Of a stretch of DNA of 64,000 nucleotides, positions 16,943 through 61,250 are shown one piece after another. Source of the stretch: a virus; the IMG/VR virus record IMGVR_UViG_3300037264_003623, positions 45,084 through 109,083 of that record; one strand, written 5' to 3'. The translations under genes were made by a program, and so were the position numbers. Positions within the stretch are counted from its first letter, which is position 1, and every line of letters starts with the position of its first letter. The notes under the pieces were generated by a model. The model had not been told where the DNA came from. It ran no database searches and saw nothing but the letters and a program-made list of their open reading frames with translations.

Positions 16943-17171
16943 AGACCTCAAGTGCAGGACATGCGGGGAGTGGATGAAGGAGATTGCCTGTCACGAGGAC
17001 TCCAACGCTCGCGACTGGATCACGATGTGGTGCCCGGAGTGCGGGACCATCTGCGGATCCTTCGAGTCGGTGTCAGGTCCGCAGGATTACCACTGGGAGT
17101 TCCCGAAGATGGCATCCCTCCCCGAGGTCGGGGCCGCACTTTCTCTCATGCGTGACAGGAACAAGGGTTGA
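16935..17171 (+). CDS. Hypothetical zinc-ribbon protein
   Basis: A 78-residue protein with CRTCG near the start and CPECG about 27 residues later, a plain zinc ribbon. The last codons contain the -35 box of the tRNA promoter (TTGACG overlaps the stop). Confidence 0.7.
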   Translation: MSRDLKCRTCGEWMKEIACHEDSNARDWITMWCPECGTICGSFESVSGPQDYHWEFPKMASLPEVGAALSLMRDRNKG

Positions 17172-17195
17172 CGGAGAGGCGAAACCGCCTATAAT
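17168..17195 (+). promoter_or_regulatory. Promoter of the tRNA operon
   Basis: TTGACG, spacer GAGAGGCGAAACCGCC (16), TATAAT. The next ATG (17202) lies six bases after the -10 box, the same distance as at the four other start-on-ATG promoters. Confidence 0.8.
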
Positions 17196-17377: not shown

Positions 17378-17462
17378 GGGCAGGTCGGATAGCGGCAAGT
17401 CCACCTGGCTGTAAACCAGGCGCCTCAGGCTTACGTGAGTTCGAGTCTCACCCTGCCCACCA
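17378..17462 (+). tRNA. tRNA-Tyr(GUA)
   Basis: Acceptor GGGCAGG/CCTGCCC, anticodon arm CCTGG-CTGTAAA-CCAGG, long variable arm as in bacterial tRNA-Tyr, T loop TTCGAGT, discriminator A and encoded CCA. Confidence 0.95.
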
Positions 17463-17537
17463 CGCGCTGTGGCCCAGTCTGGCTAGGGCGCCTGCTTCGG
17501 GAGCAGGAAAACGCCGGTTCGATTCCGGCCAGCGCGA
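17463..17537 (+). tRNA. tRNA-Pro(CGG)
   Basis: Acceptor CGCGCTG/CAGCGCG, D stem GCCC/GGGC, anticodon arm CCTGC-TTCGGGA-GCAGG, T arm GCCGG-TTCGATT-CCGGC. CCA not encoded. Starts on the base after the Tyr CCA. Confidence 0.93.
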
Positions 17538-17538
17538 T

Positions 17539-17615
17539 GCTGGGATAGCTCAGACGGTAGTAGCACTGGACTGAAAATCCAGGTGTCGCCGGTTCGATTC
17601 CGGCTCCCAGCGCCA
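17539..17615 (+). tRNA. tRNA-Phe(GAA)
   Basis: Acceptor GCTGGGA/TCCCAGC, D arm GCTC...GAGC-like, anticodon arm CTGGA-CTGAAAA-TCCAG, T arm GCCGG-TTCGATT-CCGGC, encoded CCA. Confidence 0.92.
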
Positions 17616-17703
17616 GCGGAAGTGGCGGAACGGCTAACGCACCCGGTTCAAGGCCGGGCGGCTCGAAAGGGCCTTGCGGGTTCGAGTCCCGCCTTCCGCA
17701 CCA
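17616..17703 (+). tRNA. tRNA-Leu(CAA)
   Basis: Acceptor GCGGAAG/CTTCCGC, anticodon arm CCCGG-TTCAAGG-CCGGG, long variable arm, T loop TTCGAGT, encoded CCA. Confidence 0.92.
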
Positions 17704-17787
17704 GGGCGAGTGGTGGAGTTGGCAGACACCTGTGTTTGAGGGGCACAGGCCCGAAAGGGCATGCGGGTTCGACCCCCGCCTCGCCCA
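17704..17787 (+). tRNA. tRNA-Leu(GAG)
   Basis: Acceptor GGGCGAG/CTCGCCC, anticodon arm TGTGT-TTGAGGG-GCACA with a terminal U-G pair, long variable arm, T loop TTCGACC. CCA not encoded. Same anticodon as the disrupted copy that begins two bases later. Confidence 0.88.
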
Positions 17788-17789
17788 TT

Positions 17790-17823
17790 GCCGGGGTGGT
17801 GAAGTTGGCAGACGCGCTGGCAT
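17790..17823 (+). pseudogene. 5' half of a split tRNA-Leu
   Basis: GCCGGGG acceptor strand, leucine-type D arm and the 5' anticodon stem CTGGC, then an abrupt end where the next tRNA begins. The matching 3' half lies at 18501-18555. Confidence 0.85.
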
Positions 17824-17907
17824 GTTGGAGTGGCGTAATGGCTAACGCACCGGACTCAGGATCCGGGTCCGAAAGGACACCTGTGGGTTCGACTCCCACC
17901 TCCGACA
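17824..17907 (+). tRNA. tRNA-Leu(CAG)
   Basis: Acceptor GTTGGAG/CTCCGAC (one U-G pair), anticodon arm CCGGA-CTCAGGA-TCCGG, variable arm GTCC/GGAC, T loop TTCGACT. CCA not encoded. It lies between the two halves of the split tRNA-Leu, just before the HNH promoter. Confidence 0.92.
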
Positions 17908-17915
17908 TTAAAGAC

Positions 17916-17944
17916 TTGGCAGACTCATAGGAACGGGTTATAAT
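17916..17944 (+). promoter_or_regulatory. Promoter of the HNH gene in the tRNA operon
   Basis: TTGGCA, 17-base spacer, TATAAT, then a 26-base leader with AGGAGG before ATG 17971. Confidence 0.7.
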
Positions 17945-17970
17945 ATGTCGTCCAAGTAGGAGGACGACAG

Positions 17971-18504
17971 ATGAGAAGGGAAGAGGATCTGCGAAGGGTG
18001 GTTTCCGAGTGCGTGTCTTTTGCCCAGGTTCTTCGACGTTTGGGATTGAAGCAGGCTGGCGGAAGTCAGAGCGAGTTGAAGAAGAGGGTGGAGGCGCTCG
18101 GGATAAGCACAAGTCATTTCCTTGGCAGGAGGACGAACTCGGGGGCGCACCATCGCGGCGGGTGCCCCAAGAAGGCTTGCTCGGAGGTATTGGTTCGTAG
18201 CGTGAGGCGGCATCCCTACCTTCTTCGCCGGGCCTTGCTCGAATCGGGGAGGGAGTACCGCTGCCAAGGAGACGGTTGCCCGGTAAGGGATGAATGGCTT
18301 GGGAAGAAGATCGTCTTGCAGGTGGATCACGTTGATGGAGACAGGAGCAACAATAGGGCTTCCAACCTTCGATTCCTTTGCCCCAACTGTCATTCGCAGA
18401 CAGGCAACTGGGGAAAGAACGAAGGGGGAACGGATCTGACCACTAACGCGAGGCAGTGCCAGAACTGGAGACGGAAACGCCGGGAAGCATCGGGCACGGT
18501 TTGA
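17971..18504 (+). CDS. HNH homing-type endonuclease inside tRNA-Leu
   Basis: A 177-residue protein. The N terminus (FAQVLRRLGLKQAGGSQSEL) reads as a small helix-turn-helix-type DNA-reading part. The C terminus holds the HNH block LQVDHVDGDRSNNR, NLRFLCPNCHSQT with H-N-N residues and a CxxC zinc knuckle partner (CQGDGC). The stop codon falls within the first bases of the 3' tRNA half, so the gene fits tightly between the halves. The gene is less GC-rich than flanking genes. Confidence 0.9.
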   Translation: MRREEDLRRVVSECVSFAQVLRRLGLKQAGGSQSELKKRVEALGISTSHFLGRRTNSGAHHRGGCPKKACSEVLVRSVRRHPYLLRRALLESGREYRCQGDGCPVRDEWLGKKIVLQVDHVDGDRSNNRASNLRFLCPNCHSQTGNWGKNEGGTDLTTNARQCQNWRRKRREASGTV

Positions 18505-18555
18505 GGAGCCAGTGCCCGAAAGGGCGTGCGAGTTCGACCCTCGCCCCCGGCACCA
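18501..18555 (+). pseudogene. 3' half of a split tRNA-Leu
   Basis: Loop end TTGAGGA, stem GCCAG (pairs with CTGGC at the 5' half), long variable arm, T arm GCGAG-TTCGACC-CTCGC, CCCCGGC (pairs with GCCGGGG of the 5' half), discriminator A, CCA. Joining the halves gives a normal tRNA-Leu with anticodon GAG whatever exact junction is chosen. Confidence 0.85.
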
Positions 18556-18556
18556 T

Positions 18557-18630
18557 GTGGTCGTGGTCCAGCGGTAGGGCGCTTGGTTGTGCCCCAAGAG
18601 ATGGCGGTTCGACTCCGCCCGATCACCCCA
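18557..18630 (+). tRNA. tRNA-His(GUG)
   Basis: Acceptor GTGGTCG/CGATCAC with one G-U pair, anticodon arm CTTGG-TTGTGCC-CCAAG, T arm GGCGG-TTCGACT-CCGCC, C73 and encoded CCA. The base before G1 is T, so the usual genome-encoded G-1 facing C73 is absent. Confidence 0.9.
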
Positions 18631-18706
18631 GCCCTCGTAGCTCAGTTGGTAGAGCGGCGCTTTCGTAAAGCGCAGGCCGCAGGTCCGATGCCTGCCGGGG
18701 GCTCCA
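18631..18706 (+). tRNA. tRNA-Thr(CGU)
   Basis: Acceptor GCCCTCG/CGGGGGC, D arm GCTC...GAGC, anticodon arm GCGCT-TTCGTAA-AGCGC, T arm GCAGG-TCCGATG-CCTGC, encoded CCA. The T loop has C instead of the near-universal U55. Confidence 0.9.
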
Positions 18707-18719
18707 GGGGCATGGAAAT

Positions 18720-18738
18720 CGCGGATAGCCTATCCGCG
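18720..18738. repeat. 19-base perfect dyad after the tRNA operon
   Basis: CGCGGATAG-C-CTATCCGCG: nine-base arms around one base. No T run follows, so it is as likely to be a protein site as a terminator. The remaining bases to 18950 hold no gene that I can support; they include a T run at 18801-18805 and the ribosome site of the next gene. Confidence 0.6.
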
Positions 18739-18950
18739 CCGCTATACCGCATCTATATCCGGAACGGTGAGTTCACCCCTCGGGACCTACCCCCGGCGAT
18801 CTTTTTCCCCCTTCTCCAGATGTGGATTCCTGTCGAACTTCGCACTTCTCGCGGAATAGGAGGGAATCAGAGGACGATTCCTGTAAGAAACGCGATCGAC
18901 AGGTGTTCAGGAGGGATGAAGTGAGGTTGAAGTGAGGCTGGAGGTGGCTG

Positions 18951-24805: not shown

Positions 24806-25272
24806 TGCCCAGGGAAGACCCGATCCGCGAGTACTTCGAGATCGATCTCCCCGACAAGAGATTCCGTGAGCAGAACGAGCGCCTTCAGCGGAAGATCGAC
24901 GAGGGCATCGGGATGAGGGGGAGTCCGCCGCGTTTGAGGAAGACATGGTGGATCTCCACTCCAGGGATGGATTCCAAACGTGCGTTCGGTCTCTCCGATG
25001 CCATTGAGGCGCTCGACTCCCCGGACATGATCTCGGATATGGGCCACATCCCTCTGGTCCGGTGGAGCGGGTGTTTGTGGCACCTGATGGTTTCCTCCCA
25101 CTGCAACCCGGCCAGGGTGGTGTCGGCGTGCGGAGAAACCTTCCCGATGGGAGAGAGGGTGGAGGGGAAACTGGAGATCGAGCCGAACCGGAACCTGACC
25201 TGCATGGGGTGCTGGACCCACGTCGAGGCGGCCAAGGTCGCCCTGATCCTGGCGGGGGAGAGCGATGAGTGA
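24802..25272 (+). CDS. Hypothetical protein
   Basis: A 156-residue protein with GGGAGGGG before ATG 24802/24805. The C-terminal half has VSACGET and CMGCWTH, again the CG...CxxC order found in neighbouring small proteins. Overlaps the methyltransferase start by eight bases. Confidence 0.65.
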   Translation: MMPREDPIREYFEIDLPDKRFREQNERLQRKIDEGIGMRGSPPRLRKTWWISTPGMDSKRAFGLSDAIEALDSPDMISDMGHIPLVRWSGCLWHLMVSSHCNPARVVSACGETFPMGERVEGKLEIEPNRNLTCMGCWTHVEAAKVALILAGESDE

Positions 25273-26896
25273 GGCCGACCGCTTCGCCGGATTTCCATCG
25301 CCCTCGTGGGCATCGCCCGCTGGCTGGGCCCGGCTTCACCTGGGGAACTGCGTCGAGGTGATGAGGTCCCTGCCTGAGTCCTCGATCGACGCGATCGTGA
25401 CCGACCCCCCGTATGGTATTGAGTTCATGGGGAGGGATTTCGACAAGTTGGGGCAGGGGCCGCAGATGCAGGAATGGCACCGGGCGTGGGCGGTCGAGGC
25501 TCTTCGAGTGGCTAAACCCGGTGCCTTCCTTCTTGCCTTTGGCGGAACCCGGACTTGGCATCGACTTGCGTGCGCGATTGAGGATGCAGGATGGGAGATC
25601 AGGGATACTCTCATGTGGATGTACGGGCAGGGATTTTCTAAAAGCATGGATGTCTCGAAGGCGATCGATAAGGCGGCGGGGTCTGATCGGGAGAAGATCC
25701 CGGAGGGGAACTCCGTAAAGCGGATGGTGCCGGGGGCGGACCAATACAAGACTAATTCCTGGATCAAAAGCGACGATCACATGTACCAGTCGGGGCGGGA
25801 GGTTCCGGTGACGGAGGCCGCGAGGACTTGGGAGGGCTATGGCACATCGCTAAAACCAGCCTGGGAGCCGGTCGTGGTCGCCCGGAAGCCCCTGGCCGGG
25901 ACGGTGGTTGATAACGTCCTGAAGCACGGGACGGGGGCGCTGAACATCGATGGGACGAGAATCAGGATCGCGCCCACTTCTCAGGATGGCTCTCGTAGTA
26001 GTCCTGATGATAGCATTTGCGACACATGCCCTTCGCGTGAGGTTTCCCATACTGTCCGCAGCGAGGACATTCACATGGAGGCCTCGTCTGCTCCTCAACG
26101 CGACGGTCGTAGCGTCCTTCGACCCAGTGAATCCGAATATGAGATCGAGAATCAATCACGCATAGATTCTCGGGCGAGTCGTCGTCCTTCCTACCGTTTA
26201 GATGATGGACTTGCTCATGCGGAAGAAGAGCCCGACCAAGCATACGTTCAGCAACGACTCGGTGATACCGAGTCTCCCGTCCGTCAACTAAGCAGCAGGT
26301 GTATCCACGCGGGTCTTTCCACATGTTTACATCGTACTACACCACATGTTGAAAGTCAAGGCCGCTTCCCCGCGAACGTGATCCACGACGGGAGCGAGGA
26401 GGTGGTAGGGATGTTCCCCGATCGCAAGACGACCTGGATCGATCCGTCTCATGCGAACAACCGGGGCGGGGATTTCCTGGGGGCTCTTGGGCATCCCGGG
26501 ATGCAGGGGTTCAACGACTCCGGCTCCGCCGCCCGCTTTTTCTACACGTCGAAGGCTGATGCGTCCGAGCGGTGGTTCTACTGCCGGATCTGCCAGGGGG
26601 CCTACCCCGCGTCCGCGGAGCAGGGGCACCACCACGGGAAGGGGCTGGGGAAGTGCCAGCACATCTTTAGACACCCGACCGTGAAGCCCTTGTCTCTATG
26701 CTCTTGGCTCTGCCGCCTCGTCTCGATGCCAGGGGGGAGCGTGATCCTCGATCCGTTCATGGGGTCGGGCTCGACGGGCGTGGCGGCCCTCGTGGAGGGC
26801 CAGCGGTTCGTTGGGGTGGAGATGGACGGGGAGTTCTTCGCCCTATCGGCGGCCCGGGTCGCGGACGCGAAGCGCCAGCCGGGCCTCTTCGACTGA
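25265..26896 (+). CDS. DNA methyltransferase (beta-type N6A/N4C) with an in-frame antisense HNH insertion
   Basis: A 543-codon frame. The N-terminal part has motif IV TDPPY at residues 46-50; the C-terminal part has HPTVKPL and motif I DPFMGSGSTG at 496-505, with VGVEMD after it. Motif IV before motif I is the beta-class order; known enzymes of this class methylate adenine N6 or cytosine N4. Residues about 236-360 do not look like a methyltransferase: they are polar, compositionally foreign, and are the reverse reading of an HNH gene. Joining ...NIDGTRI to GRFPANVIHD gives the normal family sequence. The frame stays open across the insertion, so a full-length, interrupted enzyme could still be made. 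Confidence 0.88.
   Translation: MSEADRFAGFPSPSWASPAGWARLHLGNCVEVMRSLPESSIDAIVTDPPYGIEFMGRDFDKLGQGPQMQEWHRAWAVEALRVAKPGAFLLAFGGTRTWHRLACAIEDAGWEIRDTLMWMYGQGFSKSMDVSKAIDKAAGSDREKIPEGNSVKRMVPGADQYKTNSWIKSDDHMYQSGREVPVTEAARTWEGYGTSLKPAWEPVVVARKPLAGTVVDNVLKHGTGALNIDGTRIRIAPTSQDGSRSSPDDSICDTCPSREVSHTVRSEDIHMEASSAPQRDGRSVLRPSESEYEIENQSRIDSRASRRPSYRLDDGLAHAEEEPDQAYVQQRLGDTESPVRQLSSRCIHAGLSTCLHRTTPHVESQGRFPANVIHDGSEEVVGMFPDRKTTWIDPSHANNRGGDFLGALGHPGMQGFNDSGSAARFFYTSKADASERWFYCRICQGAYPASAEQGHHHGKGLGKCQHIFRHPTVKPLSLCSWLCRLVSMPGGSVILDPFMGSGSTGVAALVEGQRFVGVEMDGEFFALSAARVADAKRQPGLFD
25962..26324 (-). CDS. HNH endonuclease nested antisense in the methyltransferase
   Basis: A 120-residue protein on the minus strand. 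Residues 1-70 carry the HNH block: YHRVVAERMLGRALLPHEQVHHLNG, DDDSPENLCV, SHIRIH in separate pieces. A C-terminal zinc knuckle CPRCGQYGKPHAKGMCRKC may bind DNA. It has its own promoter and an ATG on the predicted +1. Its stop lies in the methyltransferase sequence, so the gene fills the insertion. Less GC-rich than flanks. Confidence 0.85.
   Translation of the reverse strand: MWKDPRGYTCCLVDGRETRYHRVVAERMLGRALLPHEQVHHLNGRKDDDSPENLCVIDSRSHIRIHWVEGRYDRRVEEQTRPPCECPRCGQYGKPHAKGMCRKCYHQDYYESHPEKWARS
26331..26359 (-). promoter_or_regulatory. Promoter of the nested HNH gene, start on the ATG
   Basis: Minus strand TTGACT (26359-26354), 17 bases, TACGAT (26336-26331), six bases, ATG at 26324. No ribosome site. 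Confidence 0.5.
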
Positions 26897-57811: not shown

Positions 57812-58165
57812 ATGGGAGCTTCCGAAGGAACCTACCAGCCGGAACGCGGCTACAAGAATGGGGCGGGGGATTTCATTCTCGAAGCCGGGGCGCGATATCA
57901 CCCTTTCCGCCTCACCACGGTCCTCTGGCAGCGCAAGAACGTCAACGCCGTGGACATCCATCTGGAGATGCTCGACGGCGACAAGGTGTTCACCATCGAC
58001 GAGTATCTCACCTGCACGGACAAGCACTATTCCTGGCCGAACGAGGATAGCCCATGTCCTCTCGCTCTCGTGCCTTCGCAGAGGGTTAGGCTCCGAGTGA
58101 CCGGGGCCAATGCGACGGAGGAGCAGTCGGCGGTGGTCGTATGGGCGGAGCTGGGCGCGGTGTAG
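57812..58165 (+). CDS. Hypothetical virion protein
   Basis: A 117-residue beta-rich protein with GGGGAGTAG before ATG 57812. No domain recognised; immediately upstream of the portal. Confidence 0.66.
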   Translation: MGASEGTYQPERGYKNGAGDFILEAGARYHPFRLTTVLWQRKNVNAVDIHLEMLDGDKVFTIDEYLTCTDKHYSWPNEDSPCPLALVPSQRVRLRVTGANATEEQSAVVVWAELGAV

Positions 58166-58184
58166 ACCCGGCTTGGGGGATTGC

Positions 58185-61100
58185 ATGGACGGCGACGGGA
58201 TCAGAGAAACGCTCGGGGAGGCGCTCATAGGCAAGGATGTTGGCCCCGATGCAATGGAGAACCTAGTGAAAGTTCTCCTGGTGGGCGGGGATGTCGAGGG
58301 GCAGAGTCCTCGGAAGAAGAAGAACAACGAGGAGCCGGAAGCGCCGCCCGCCACGAAACAGCTCGACGATTTTCAACAGATCGTCGGGGAGTTCGTCCCA
58401 CCCGCCTTCAACCCCGGTATATGGGCACAGACGCTCAAGGTCAACACTCGCCTCGCCAGGTGTATCCGGTCGTTCGCGAGGAACACCGTCGGCCTTGGGT
58501 GGAGCATCGAACCCATCCACCCGGTCACGGAGGAAATTCCGAAGCCGATCCGCGATCTCATCACGAAGCAGACCGAGGCGCTCCGGGAGTTCTTCAACCA
58601 CCCGAACCCGACGATACCGATGACCGAGATCTTCTACCTGGAGAAGGTGGATGAGGAGGCCACGGGCAACGGGTACATCGAGGTGGTGCGGAACAACTCG
58701 GGGAAGATCTCGAAGATGTTCCACGTCCCTTCCATCACAGTCCGGAGGAGGATCATCCGGGAGGAAGGGAAACCGGTGGTGTCGGGGTTCGTGCAGATCC
58801 GTGGGAGCCAGAAGAGATACTTCAAGGACTTTGGCGACAAGCGGGTGATGGATGCCTTCAATGGGAAGTACCATGACGGGAAGGAGCCGCTTTCGGCCGA
58901 TCATCGCGCCACCGAGATCCTCCATTTCCTGGTCTACGACCCGGGGAGCTCCTACTACGGGGCCCCGAGGTACATCCCGGCGGCGACCGCCATCGCGGGC
59001 AACCGTCAGGCCGCCATCCGCAACGTGAACTTCTTCGAGAATGACGCCGTCCCGCGCATGGCGCTCCTCATCTCCGGTGGGAAGCTCACCGGGGACTCCG
59101 TGCAGCAGATCGAGGACTTCGTTCGGGCCAAGGGCCGCGGCGTCGAGAACGCGCACAGGGTGATGATCGTCCAGGTGGAGCCGATCAAGGTCGGGTTCCA
59201 GCAGCAGAACAAGGTCATGGTGGACCTGAAGCCGCTGACCGTGGGCGTGACTGAGGACGCCAGCTTCTCCCAGTATCGGGAGGCGAACGACGAGGAGGTC
59301 CGCGAGATATTCGGGCTGGGCCAGATCTTCTTCAAGGCGGAGGGCGCGAACCGGGCGAACGCGCAGGTCTGTCTCGCGGGGCATGTCTCTATCCCCCTCC
59401 TCGATGGACGGGTTATCACGATGAGGGATCTCACCCGGGAATTCGCGGACGGGAGGAGGTTCGCCGTCTATTCCCTGGACCATGCGGGGAATGTCGTCTG
59501 CGGATGGGCTCACCATCCGAGGAAGACCAAAACCGACCAGACCTATGATGTCATTCTCGACTCGGGGCAGGCCGTCAGGGCCAACGCGAGTCATCCGTTC
59601 ATGCTCCGGGATGGGACGTATTGCCCCGTGGGCAACCTCAGGCCAGGGATGAGCCTGATGCCCTGGTATGTCCGGATGGGGTTCAAGAACGCCTTGAGCG
59701 TCGATGCGAGCACTTACGGATACTGGGAGATCTACAACCCTGCATCGGACAGATGGGATCTTGTGCATCGGAGGATCCTTGCGGGCGAGGGCGTGGACCT
59801 TCGCGGGATGTCGGTCCATCATCGAGACGGGAACCCGTTGAACAACGACTTGTCGAATCTGGACGCGCTAACGTGCTCGGAACATATCCGTCTGCACAAG
59901 GGCGGGAGGCGTGGTGAGTACTTCGGTTCGGATCACCCAGGGTTCAAGCACTTCGATTTCGATGAGGTGGTGAGGGTCGCGGCCACCTGCGGGGGTCGTC
60001 CGACGCTCCTGAGGCGACTGGAGATCGGCTCTTCGGCGCTCTACCGGGTCCTCAAGGAGCATGGACTGACCTATGAGGAGTTCCGATGGAAGCACATGGG
60101 GCCGAAGAATCGCCCTCCAGGGGGGAGGTCTCACACAAGGTTCCGGAAGGACGCGAGTTTTGAGCATCTCGCGGAGAAGGCACCGGGTTGCCGGTATCGG
60201 AGGGATTTGATCTCGGCCACGGGGTACTCCGCGAACCTCATCCTCCGTCTCATGAGGGAGCACGGGTACGACTACGCGAGATTCCGTGCGGAGTTCATGG
60301 GCATGAAAGCCCCCGTGATGAATCATCGTGTGGTGGCCGTGGTCCCCGCCGGGATCGAGGATGTGTTCGACCTCACGGTGGACCGGTATGAGAACTTCGC
60401 CGTGGCGGCGGGGGTGTTCGTCCACAATTCTCGCGAGATCACCAACGAGCAGGAGCTTGAGCCCGATCGCCTCTCGAAGGAGTACGTCATCAACCAGACC
60501 ATCGTGGAGGACATCCTCTTCCAGCAGATGGGCGTGACAGGCGATGAGTCTCCCGAGGAGGTCGAGGAGTTCCACAAGAACATCCACGTCCGGTTTCGGT
60601 TCGCCAGGCTTACGCTGACCGATCCGCTCGACGAGGCGCGGATGAACCAGATGTACGCCTCGCTCGGGGCAATCACCCCGAACGAACTCCGCGAGAGCCT
60701 CGGCAAGCCGCCGTTCCCGAAGGACTACTACTTCGCCGACAAGCCTTTGGCGATCGCGATGGCCGAGCTCACGGCAGGGCTCGCGCTTGCCATCGCCCAG
60801 AAGGACGAGGAGAAGATGCCGCAGGTCGCCGCCCCCGGTGCGCCTCCAGGGGTGGGGGTTCCAGGGGAAGAAGGCGTACCGCCGGAAGGGGTGCCTGCCG
60901 AGGAGGAACCTGAGGAAGAGGAAGCCCCGCCTGACGAGATGAATGGGCGGGAGCCGAAGGGCGTCGCTGGGATGCCTCCCATCCCTGGGGCACCGGGGGC
61001 GACACCGATCCCGGGGCTTCAGGTCATGCCGAAACCCGGTGGAGTCAAGAAGCCTTTGAGGAAACCCAGGCCCCCGAAACCAACACAGGGTATTGCATCT

Positions 61101-61250
61101 CTCCACGGGGTGCCGGTATCATCGAGGAAGACGATGGTTCCGAACCCACAGGCGTTCGGGATTCTTTCGGAGCTCATGAGCGACATCAGGAAGTTCGCCC
61201 TCGCGGGGGTGAGCTTTGCAAAGGGGGATGGAGATGGACAAGGTCGCTGA
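58185..61250 (+). CDS. Portal protein interrupted by an intein
   Basis: A 1021-residue precursor, about 668 after splicing. ARNTVGLGWSIEPI, EIFYLEKVDEEATGNGYIEV in pieces, MFHVPSITVRRR, GSSYYGAPRYIPA and REIFGLGQIFFKA are portal hallmarks (PBSX/SPP1-like rather than HK97). It forms the dodecameric entry ring that TerL docks to. The intein cuts just after NRANAQV. The C terminus has a proline/glutamate-rich tail that may extend into the head. It overlaps the protease gene by 17 bases. Confidence 0.9.
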   Translation: MDGDGIRETLGEALIGKDVGPDAMENLVKVLLVGGDVEGQSPRKKKNNEEPEAPPATKQLDDFQQIVGEFVPPAFNPGIWAQTLKVNTRLARCIRSFARNTVGLGWSIEPIHPVTEEIPKPIRDLITKQTEALREFFNHPNPTIPMTEIFYLEKVDEEATGNGYIEVVRNNSGKISKMFHVPSITVRRRIIREEGKPVVSGFVQIRGSQKRYFKDFGDKRVMDAFNGKYHDGKEPLSADHRATEILHFLVYDPGSSYYGAPRYIPAATAIAGNRQAAIRNVNFFENDAVPRMALLISGGKLTGDSVQQIEDFVRAKGRGVENAHRVMIVQVEPIKVGFQQQNKVMVDLKPLTVGVTEDASFSQYREANDEEVREIFGLGQIFFKAEGANRANAQVCLAGHVSIPLLDGRVITMRDLTREFADGRRFAVYSLDHAGNVVCGWAHHPRKTKTDQTYDVILDSGQAVRANASHPFMLRDGTYCPVGNLRPGMSLMPWYVRMGFKNALSVDASTYGYWEIYNPASDRWDLVHRRILAGEGVDLRGMSVHHRDGNPLNNDLSNLDALTCSEHIRLHKGGRRGEYFGSDHPGFKHFDFDEVVRVAATCGGRPTLLRRLEIGSSALYRVLKEHGLTYEEFRWKHMGPKNRPPGGRSHTRFRKDASFEHLAEKAPGCRYRRDLISATGYSANLILRLMREHGYDYARFRAEFMGMKAPVMNHRVVAVVPAGIEDVFDLTVDRYENFAVAAGVFVHNSREITNEQELEPDRLSKEYVINQTIVEDILFQQMGVTGDESPEEVEEFHKNIHVRFRFARLTLTDPLDEARMNQMYASLGAITPNELRESLGKPPFPKDYYFADKPLAIAMAELTAGLALAIAQKDEEKMPQVAAPGAPPGVGVPGEEGVPPEGVPAEEEPEEEEAPPDEMNGREPKGVAGMPPIPGAPGATPIPGLQVMPKPGGVKKPLRKPRPPKPTQGIASLHGVPVSSRKTMVPNPQAFGILSELMSDIRKFALAGVSFAKGDGDGQGR
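59370..60428 (+). mobile_element. Portal intein with HNH endonuclease
   Basis: 353 residues: C-LAGHVSI start, RANASHPFML block B, HNH block MSVHHRDGNPLNNDLSNL with SEHIRLH, and end VFDLTVDRYENFAVAAG with VFVHN and Ser +1. Complete splicing residues. The HNH block is unlike those of the TerL inteins. Confidence 0.9.

What the first reader, a model, noticed from the sequence alone, without database searches (positions are those of the whole stretch)
17790..18555. tRNA-Leu split in its anticodon loop by a complete tRNA-Leu plus an HNH gene
Seen: 5' half 17790-17823 and 3' half 18501-18555 pair in acceptor (GCCGGGG/CCCCGGC) and anticodon stems (CTGGC/GCCAG) and rebuild a Leu(GAG) tRNA. Between them lie an intact tRNA-Leu(CAG) and a promoter-driven HNH gene whose stop sits on the junction. 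The anticodon loop is the classic homing site for tRNA introns, but no group I intron core is visible. The inserted or neighbouring intact Leu tRNAs may compensate for the loss.
Basis: partly seen in the sequence, partly recalled or inferred. Interest (0 to 1): 0.8.

Follow-up and report, generated by a model that had tools for sequence, protein, structure and literature searches.

The report
Homing nuclease gene splits a tRNA-Leu
A virus has a leucine tRNA gene cut in two by an inserted DNA-cutting "homing" gene plus a spare leucine tRNA, and this belongs to a broad, apparently undescribed pattern in which relatives of that nuclease sit beside leucine tRNA genes in phages and in bacterial chromosomes.

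Summary
Joined at tRNA positions 31|32, window 17790-17821 and 18501-18555 give a perfect 87-nt tRNA-Leu(GAG). The 679-bp insert (17822-18500) holds an intact tRNA-Leu(CAG) and a promoter-driven 177-aa HNH gene. The HNH stop codon is made from the anticodon loop of the broken tRNA. No intron core is present. The best explanation is insertion of a free-standing (intronless) HNH homing endonuclease into a tRNA-Leu gene, leaving a dead split gene. The intact tRNA-Leu(GAG) at 17704-17787 can cover the loss.

Relatives support this. Of 64 non-redundant phage loci with a tRNA within 150 nt of the HNH gene, the nearest is Leu in 37 (16.7 expected; 20,000 draws never exceeded 29). Among 80 bacterial loci, 66 have the HNH stop within about 80 nt of a tRNA-Leu. 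Other broken tRNAs flank relatives: L002, L027, L063, and L162, a bacterial contig. Occupied/empty phage pairs show the gene coming and going at tRNA genes.

The closest known systems are SegB (a GIY-YIG nuclease that cuts tRNA genes) and F-CphI (collaborative homing). I found no description of a tRNA-Leu-linked HNH family. DNA cleavage is inferred, not shown, and no near relative gives this window's own empty site.

The parts
17790..17821 (+). 5' half of the split tRNA-Leu(GAG), acceptor to anticodon stem position 31
   Evidence: pairs 7/7 and 5/5 with the 3' half; joined halves called as tRNA-Leu(GAG), 87 nt
17822..18500 (+). insert of 679 bp between tRNA positions 31 and 32 (GC 0.57 against 0.633 for the window)
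17824..17907 (+). intact tRNA-Leu(CAG) inside the insert
   Evidence: ARAGORN 17823-17908; Rfam tRNA 57.6 bits
17916..17944 (+). sigma70-like promoter of the HNH gene, TTGGCA-17-TATAAT
   Evidence: 11 of 12; 2 found in the region, 0.2 expected
17958..17963 (+). ribosome binding site AGGAGG, 7 nt before the ATG
   Evidence: read from the sequence
17971..18504 (+). HNH endonuclease gene, 177 aa: N-terminal helical (HTH-like) domain, zinc-type HNH domain, C-terminal helix; stop TGA formed in the tRNA anticodon loop
18501..18555 (+). 3' half of the split tRNA-Leu(GAG), TTGAGGA loop to CCA
   Evidence: profile hit of Leu 3' halves E=6e-8
17704..17787 (+). intact tRNA-Leu(GAG) that can replace the broken one
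17616..17703 (+). intact tRNA-Leu(CAA) of the same array
17168..17195 (+). sigma70-like promoter in front of the tRNA array, TTGACG-16-TATAAT
18557..18706 (+). tRNA-His and tRNA-Thr continuing the array right after the 3' half

Best explanation
A free-standing HNH homing endonuclease gene, next to a complete tRNA-Leu(CAG), has been inserted into the anticodon loop of a phage tRNA-Leu(GAG) gene. Proposed route: the enzyme cuts an unoccupied tRNA-Leu gene in or near the anticodon stem-loop during mixed infection. Break repair copies the nuclease gene and nearby tRNA sequence into the cut gene, which destroys the recognition site. The tRNA is not an intron host and is not respliced; its halves are dead remnants. 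The phage tolerates this because an intact tRNA-Leu(GAG) lies in the same array. Shown: the anatomy, the intact catalytic residues, the missing intron, the family's link to tRNA-Leu genes, and gain or loss of the gene in related phages. Inferred: DNA cleavage, the exact cut site, repair by conversion, and co-transfer of the tRNA-Leu(CAG).
For: The joined halves form a perfect tRNA. HNH motif residues D119, H120, N132 and H141 and zinc cysteines C98, C103, C137 and C140 are invariant in 49-52 relatives and intact here. The gene has its own promoter and lower GC than its surroundings, in the lowest 3.3% of same-length stretches. Of 64 non-redundant phage loci with a tRNA within 150 nt of the HNH gene, the nearest tRNA is Leu in 37 against 16.7 expected. 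Of 80 bacterial loci, 66 have the HNH stop at -50 to +80 of a tRNA-Leu. Other split or stumped tRNAs around this HNH: L002 (5' stump ends inside the anticodon, with an intact Leu(CAG) after the HNH), L063 (acceptor 7/7, anticodon stem 6/6), L027 and L162 (HNH plus a complete tRNA-Leu between the halves), L051 and L055. Half-tRNA remnants are 3.2 times denser beside the HNH than elsewhere, p=1.6e-4. Presence/absence pairs: Maleficent against Sf17/Moogle, phiPsa347 against phiPsa374/300, PaeS_B8 against Ab02.
Against: No near relative of this phage carries the same site unoccupied; the nearest record with a large array (66% portal identity) has uninterrupted but only 60-67% similar Leu tRNAs. 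Insertion points vary across the family: in Maleficent the gene sits in front of an unchanged tRNA-Leu(UAG), not in its anticodon loop. In 27 of the 64 phage loci the nearest tRNA is not Leu. In Rhodococcus the gene is present in 18 of 18 species beside tRNA-Leu(UAG) with dN/dS of 0.09-0.2, more stable than expected of a purely selfish element. No cleavage was measured.
Confidence: 0.83

Rival explanations
1. The insert is, or recently was, a mobile intron in tRNA-Leu whose catalytic core has decayed or is undescribed, so the halves are exons.
For: The anticodon loop is the classic tRNA intron site, and three HNH relatives (L081, L083, L098) sit beside tRNA-Leu(UAA) genes with real group I introns in that loop.
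Against: No group I match in the window region even at E up to 5. The insert is filled by a complete tRNA and an ORF with its own promoter and stop. In L081, L083 and L098 the HNH lies outside the intron.
Confidence: 0.04
2. The insertion came from ordinary recombination or rearrangement within the tRNA array (microhomology GGC at the left junction); the HNH was a passenger and did not cause the break.
For: The left junction is directly in front of a complete tRNA and shares GGC with tRNA 3' ends. tRNA arrays are full of short repeats.
Against: The same HNH family recurs at broken tRNAs and beside tRNA-Leu in unrelated genomes, and presence/absence pairs involve the HNH gene.
Confidence: 0.1
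3. The HNH acts mainly on tRNA-Leu RNA or has a domesticated regulatory or defence role beside tRNA-Leu, and its DNA mobility is secondary.
For: The Septu defence system, whose PtuB subunit is an HNH protein (own knowledge), cleaves tRNA-Tyr (PMC13096335). The Rhodococcus copies are present in 18/18 species and under purifying selection.
Against: Insertions into tRNA genes and presence/absence alleles are expected of DNA homing, not of an RNase.
Confidence: 0.08
4. The halves are expressed apart and trans-spliced or annealed into a working tRNA-Leu(GAG).
For: The halves pair perfectly and have not decayed.
Against: An intact tRNA-Leu(GAG) is present in the same array. From general knowledge, trans-spliced tRNAs are described from archaea, not phages. 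Other split copies around this HNH have decayed (L027, L162).
Confidence: 0.02

Closest known systems
SegB of phages T4/T6 (GIY-YIG free-standing homing endonuclease; Brok-Volchanskaya 2008, cited in PMC6409571; PMC13096335)
   Same: Phage homing endonuclease gene beside tRNA genes that cuts inside tRNA genes and spreads or amplifies the tRNA region.
   Different: Different nuclease family (GIY-YIG, not HNH). Its motif RAWTSGAAC is, read on the other strand, the T-arm GTTCSAWTY (my reading), so it is not Leu-specific, and the paper reports no isotype preference. I saw no report that it splits a tRNA at the anticodon loop.
F-CphI of cyanophage S-PM2 (collaborative homing; PMC6083498)
   Same: Free-standing nuclease that targets a gene's intron insertion site. 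Some relatives here (L081, L083, L098) sit beside intron-bearing tRNA-Leu(UAA), the same layout.
   Different: Endo VII-type nuclease, target psbA. In the window there is no intron and the target itself is interrupted.
HNH free-standing homing endonucleases of phages in general, including those of mycobacteriophage tRNA arrays (PMC5966550, PMC6409571)
   Same: HNH genes are known as the most widespread coding genes in some tRNA arrays and were suggested to shape tRNA repertoires.
   Different: No tRNA-Leu specificity, split tRNA genes, or chromosomal tRNA-Leu linkage is described in the passages read.
Group I introns of tRNA-Leu(UAA)
   Same: Insertion in the anticodon loop of tRNA-Leu.
   Different: No ribozyme core here; the tRNA is destroyed, not restored.

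Membership tests
free-standing (intronless) HNH homing endonuclease | HNH nuclease domain with intact catalytic and zinc residues | tested here: met
   Pfam HNH_3 28.7 bits over cut-off 24.8; PHROG 10822 E=8e-46; invariant residues intact
free-standing (intronless) HNH homing endonuclease | gene inserted in or next to its presumed target, not inside an intron or intein | tested here: met
   own promoter
free-standing (intronless) HNH homing endonuclease | optional gene: present or absent at the same place in close relatives | tested here: inconclusive
   met for relatives in three phage groups; no near relative of the window phage with the same site was found
free-standing (intronless) HNH homing endonuclease | cuts the unoccupied allele and is inherited preferentially in mixed infection | not testable with these tools
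   needs cleavage and co-infection assays
group I intron with homing endonuclease | group I ribozyme core between the tRNA halves | tested here: not met
   no RF00028 match in 17600-18760 at E up to 5; the same library does find introns in L081, L083 and L098
SegB-like GIY-YIG tRNA homing endonuclease | GIY-YIG nuclease domain | tested here: not met
   the only Pfam matches are HNH_3 and HNH
tRNA-targeting integrative element | integrase gene in the element and a restored target tRNA | tested here: not met
   the only family-matched gene in the insert is the HNH; the tRNA is not restored
trans-spliced split tRNA | joined mature tRNA in RNA | not testable with these tools
   no RNA data

The most novel reading that the evidence does not exclude
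This HNH clade is a tRNA-Leu-specific homing system shared by phages and bacterial chromosomes. It moves together with its own cut-resistant tRNA-Leu, so it can break a tRNA gene and supply the spare in one step; in some lineages, such as Rhodococcus, it has become a fixed companion of tRNA-Leu(UAG).
Probability: 0.35. Interest if true: 0.8.

Novelty: new variant of a known kind. Interest (0 to 1): 0.62.

Why it matters
It gives a concrete, testable example of a homing nuclease gene breaking a tRNA gene outright, with a spare tRNA-Leu inside the insert. The family link to tRNA-Leu, from phages to Actinobacteria, Acidobacteriota and Cyanobacteria, offers a mechanism for how phage tRNA arrays are shuffled and perhaps for how tRNA-Leu genes gain introns. 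It also raises the question of why a nuclease gene is kept beside tRNA-Leu(UAG) in every Rhodococcus genome examined.

Tried and rejected
Exact pattern of the 5' half in viral contigs: no match. Relatives of the ORF downstream of the array: none. blastn of the region against phages and plasmids: no match covering most of the region, only short pieces, mostly tRNA genes where annotated. Rfam for an intron in the window: none. Search for an unoccupied ortholog through portal relatives: only diverged arrays. Unoccupied alleles of L002 and L063 by exact tRNA patterns: L157 has a different tRNA-Leu(UAG), and the L063 pattern finds only its own contig and the redundant one. A general 5' stump upstream of the chromosomal HNH genes: not found except in L162 and a weak hit in L181, so the chromosomal form is linkage, not splitting. 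Structure match of the predicted HNH protein: only weak matches to HNH nucleases (best Z 5.3) and HTH DNA-binding domains (about Z 3), no closer assignment. A degenerate second 5' half just before the 3' half (GCCGGGAAG...) was seen but judged too weak to use. The idea that the linked tRNA-Leu is always a changed, resistant allele is contradicted by Maleficent, where it is unchanged. In the family trees the window sits on a long branch; its closest rows (L024, Nostocales array copies) have modest support. Pope et al. 2014 on cluster M phage tRNA repertoires was not held.

Full report
WHAT IS THERE. The window is 64 kb of a 109-kb virus record, GC 0.633. A tRNA array runs from 17378 to 18706 behind a sigma70-like promoter at 17168-17195: Tyr, Pro, Phe, Leu(CAA), Leu(GAG), then the object of the finding, then His and Thr. 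The object consists of a 5' half of a tRNA at 17790-17821, an intact tRNA-Leu(CAG), an HNH gene at 17971-18504, and a 3' tRNA half at 18501-18555.

THE SPLIT IS REAL. Joined at exactly 17821/18501, the halves are called by ARAGORN as a complete 87-nt tRNA-Leu(GAG) with all stems paired; one extra base makes the call fail. The acceptor pairs 7/7 and the anticodon stem 5/5, and 17790 is the only such place in the window (0.1 expected per Markov sequence). The 3' half matches a profile of tRNA-Leu 3' halves at E=6e-8. The insert, 17822-18500, is 679 bp and enters between tRNA positions 31 and 32, the 5' edge of the anticodon loop. The HNH stop TGA is made from the loop sequence TTTGAGGA.

NO INTRON. 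Rfam finds no intron in the region at gathering scores or up to E=5. The same library does find group I introns in other loci of this study, so the method is able to see them.

THE NUCLEASE. The 177-aa protein matches HNH_3 and HNH and PHROG 10822, an HNH endonuclease family. The HNH and zinc residues are invariant in 49-52 relatives and intact here. A predicted model (mean pLDDT 88, pTM 0.58) has an N-terminal helical domain, an HNH domain and a C-terminal helix; it matches HNH nucleases and HTH domains only weakly. It has a promoter of 11/12, a clear AGGAGG, and GC 0.579, in the lowest 3.3% of same-length stretches of the window. It looks like an active, recently acquired, free-standing nuclease gene.

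PHAGE RELATIVES. Scans of viral contigs and phage records gave 93 loci with a recognisable HNH ORF, 74 of them non-redundant. Seventy of the 74 have tRNAs in the locus, and 64 have one within 150 nt of the gene. The nearest tRNA is Leu in 37 of 64; random choice within each locus gives 16.7 on average and never more than 29 in 20,000 draws. On a tree the Leu label needs 15 changes against 24.7 for shuffled labels, 0 of 500 shuffles as low: the association is clustered but arose or was lost many times. In 20 non-redundant loci the HNH stop codon lies inside a complete downstream tRNA, 9 times ending at tRNA position 10, mostly using the conserved bases at positions 8-10 as TAG or TGA.

OTHER BROKEN tRNAs. 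L002: a 5' half of tRNA-Leu(CAG) ends inside its anticodon, the HNH follows, and a complete tRNA-Leu(CAG) comes after. L063: a tRNA split in the anticodon loop (acceptor 7/7, anticodon stem 6/6). L027: tRNA remnants (GCACGAG/CTCGTGC) enclose an HNH and a complete tRNA-Leu(CAG). L162, a contig of an Acidobacteria MAG: tRNA-Leu remnants (GCCGAAG/CTTCGGC) enclose an HNH and a complete tRNA-Leu(GAG), with the anticodon arm decayed. L051 and L055 have acceptor-paired remnants, and L031 and L064 have 5' remnants. L027 and L162 have the same composition as the window (split tRNA around HNH plus a whole tRNA-Leu), with the inner order reversed. Half-tRNA hits are 3.2 times denser beside the HNH than elsewhere in the loci, p=1.6e-4; this count leaves out the window itself because its 3' half abuts tRNA-His.

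PRESENCE AND ABSENCE. In Mooglevirus, Maleficent carries the HNH directly in front of tRNA-Leu(UAG), while Sf17 and Moogle have the uninterrupted site and an otherwise matching region; the tRNA itself is unchanged. In Otagovirus, phiPsa347 has HNH plus a different tRNA-Leu(UAG) where phiPsa374 and phiPsa300 have their own tRNA-Leu(UAG). In Pakpunavirus, PaeS_B8 has HNH in place of most of a tRNA-Trp(CCA) that is whole in Ab02. So the gene is optional and its arrival can change or destroy tRNA genes, though not always at the anticodon loop.

THE INTRON CONNECTION. L081, L083 and L098 carry the HNH beside tRNA-Leu(UAA) genes with group I introns in the anticodon loop. L083 and L078 are alike over 3.5 kb (87.5%), with HNH in both but the intron in L083 only. 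This is the layout of collaborative homing described for F-CphI (PMC6083498), here with tRNA-Leu and an HNH protein; this reading is inference.

BACTERIAL CHROMOSOMES. A scan of one genome per species returned 80 loci, the best 52% identical to the window protein. A tRNA-Leu starts within -50 to +80 of the HNH stop in 66 of 80: Leu(UAG) in most Actinobacteria and in Chloroflexi, Leu(GAG) in Acidobacteria; Nostocales copies lie in tRNA arrays. All 18 Rhodococcus genomes examined carry the gene, and tRNA-Leu(UAG) matches lie next to it; across the wider family it is patchy, 13 of 81. Pairwise dN/dS of 0.09-0.2 indicates purifying selection. Some species have further copies beside the first. Small MAG contigs such as those of L161 and L162 could be viral; the Rhodococcus loci are not open to that doubt.

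MECHANISM. Best supported: an HNH homing endonuclease cuts a tRNA-Leu gene at or near the anticodon arm, and repair from an occupied copy inserts the nuclease gene with neighbouring tRNA sequence. In the window this broke tRNA-Leu(GAG) for good, and a second tRNA-Leu(GAG) remains. Shown: anatomy, absence of an intron, conserved active site, linkage to tRNA-Leu, optional presence in relatives. Inferred: cutting, cut site, conversion, joint transfer of tRNA-Leu(CAG). Against a simple selfish reading: the stable, selected copies in Rhodococcus.

KNOWN KINDS. It works like an intronless homing endonuclease and meets the features that could be settled here; the presence/absence feature is met only in relatives, and cleavage and preferential inheritance could not be tested. 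It differs from SegB in nuclease family and in Leu preference (SegB shows none), and from tRNA-Leu introns in lacking a ribozyme. HNH genes in tRNA arrays are known and were suggested to shape tRNA repertoires (PMC5966550, PMC6409571). In ten literature searches I found no description of a tRNA-Leu-linked HNH family or of a tRNA split in this way; the library covers open-licence papers only.

VERDICT. Confirmed observation, interpretation supported, new variant of a known kind, interest 0.62.

Noticed in passing
window 58110-61250 (+): The portal protein gene carries an intein: Phage_portal 154-408, Intein_splicing 429-773 with an HNH_3 domain at 559-592.
   Followed up: partly
window 25265-26896 (+): A DNA methyltransferase matches its family in two pieces with roughly 250 aa between them, possibly another intein or insert.
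   Followed up: no
L081 3521-3708, L083 2673-2858, L098 2669-2868: Group I introns in tRNA-Leu(UAA) of viral contigs directly beside HNH genes of this family; L078 is a close intron-free counterpart of L083.
   Followed up: partly
L161-L240, for example L180 and L269: HNH genes of this family lie next to a lone tRNA-Leu(UAG) in Actinobacteria; all 18 Rhodococcus genomes examined have the gene, some with further copies beside the first.
   Followed up: partly
L163, L164, L167, L187, L189, L205: Chromosomal tRNA arrays of Nostocales and other cyanobacteria hold the nearest relatives of the window HNH in a quick tree, with degenerate tRNA-like 5' halves before some of them.
   Followed up: partly
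20 phage-side loci, for example L033, L040, L042, L105: HNH reading frames repeatedly end on bases 8-10 of a downstream tRNA, which supply the stop codon.
   Followed up: no
L154 (a relative with 66% portal identity): A relative of the window phage has an array of about 40 tRNAs covering nearly all amino acids, with uninterrupted Leu genes and no such HNH.
   Followed up: partly
literature, PMC13096335: The published SegB cleavage motif RAWTSGAAC read on the other strand is the T-arm of tRNA genes, GTTCSAWTY; the link is my reading.
   Followed up: no
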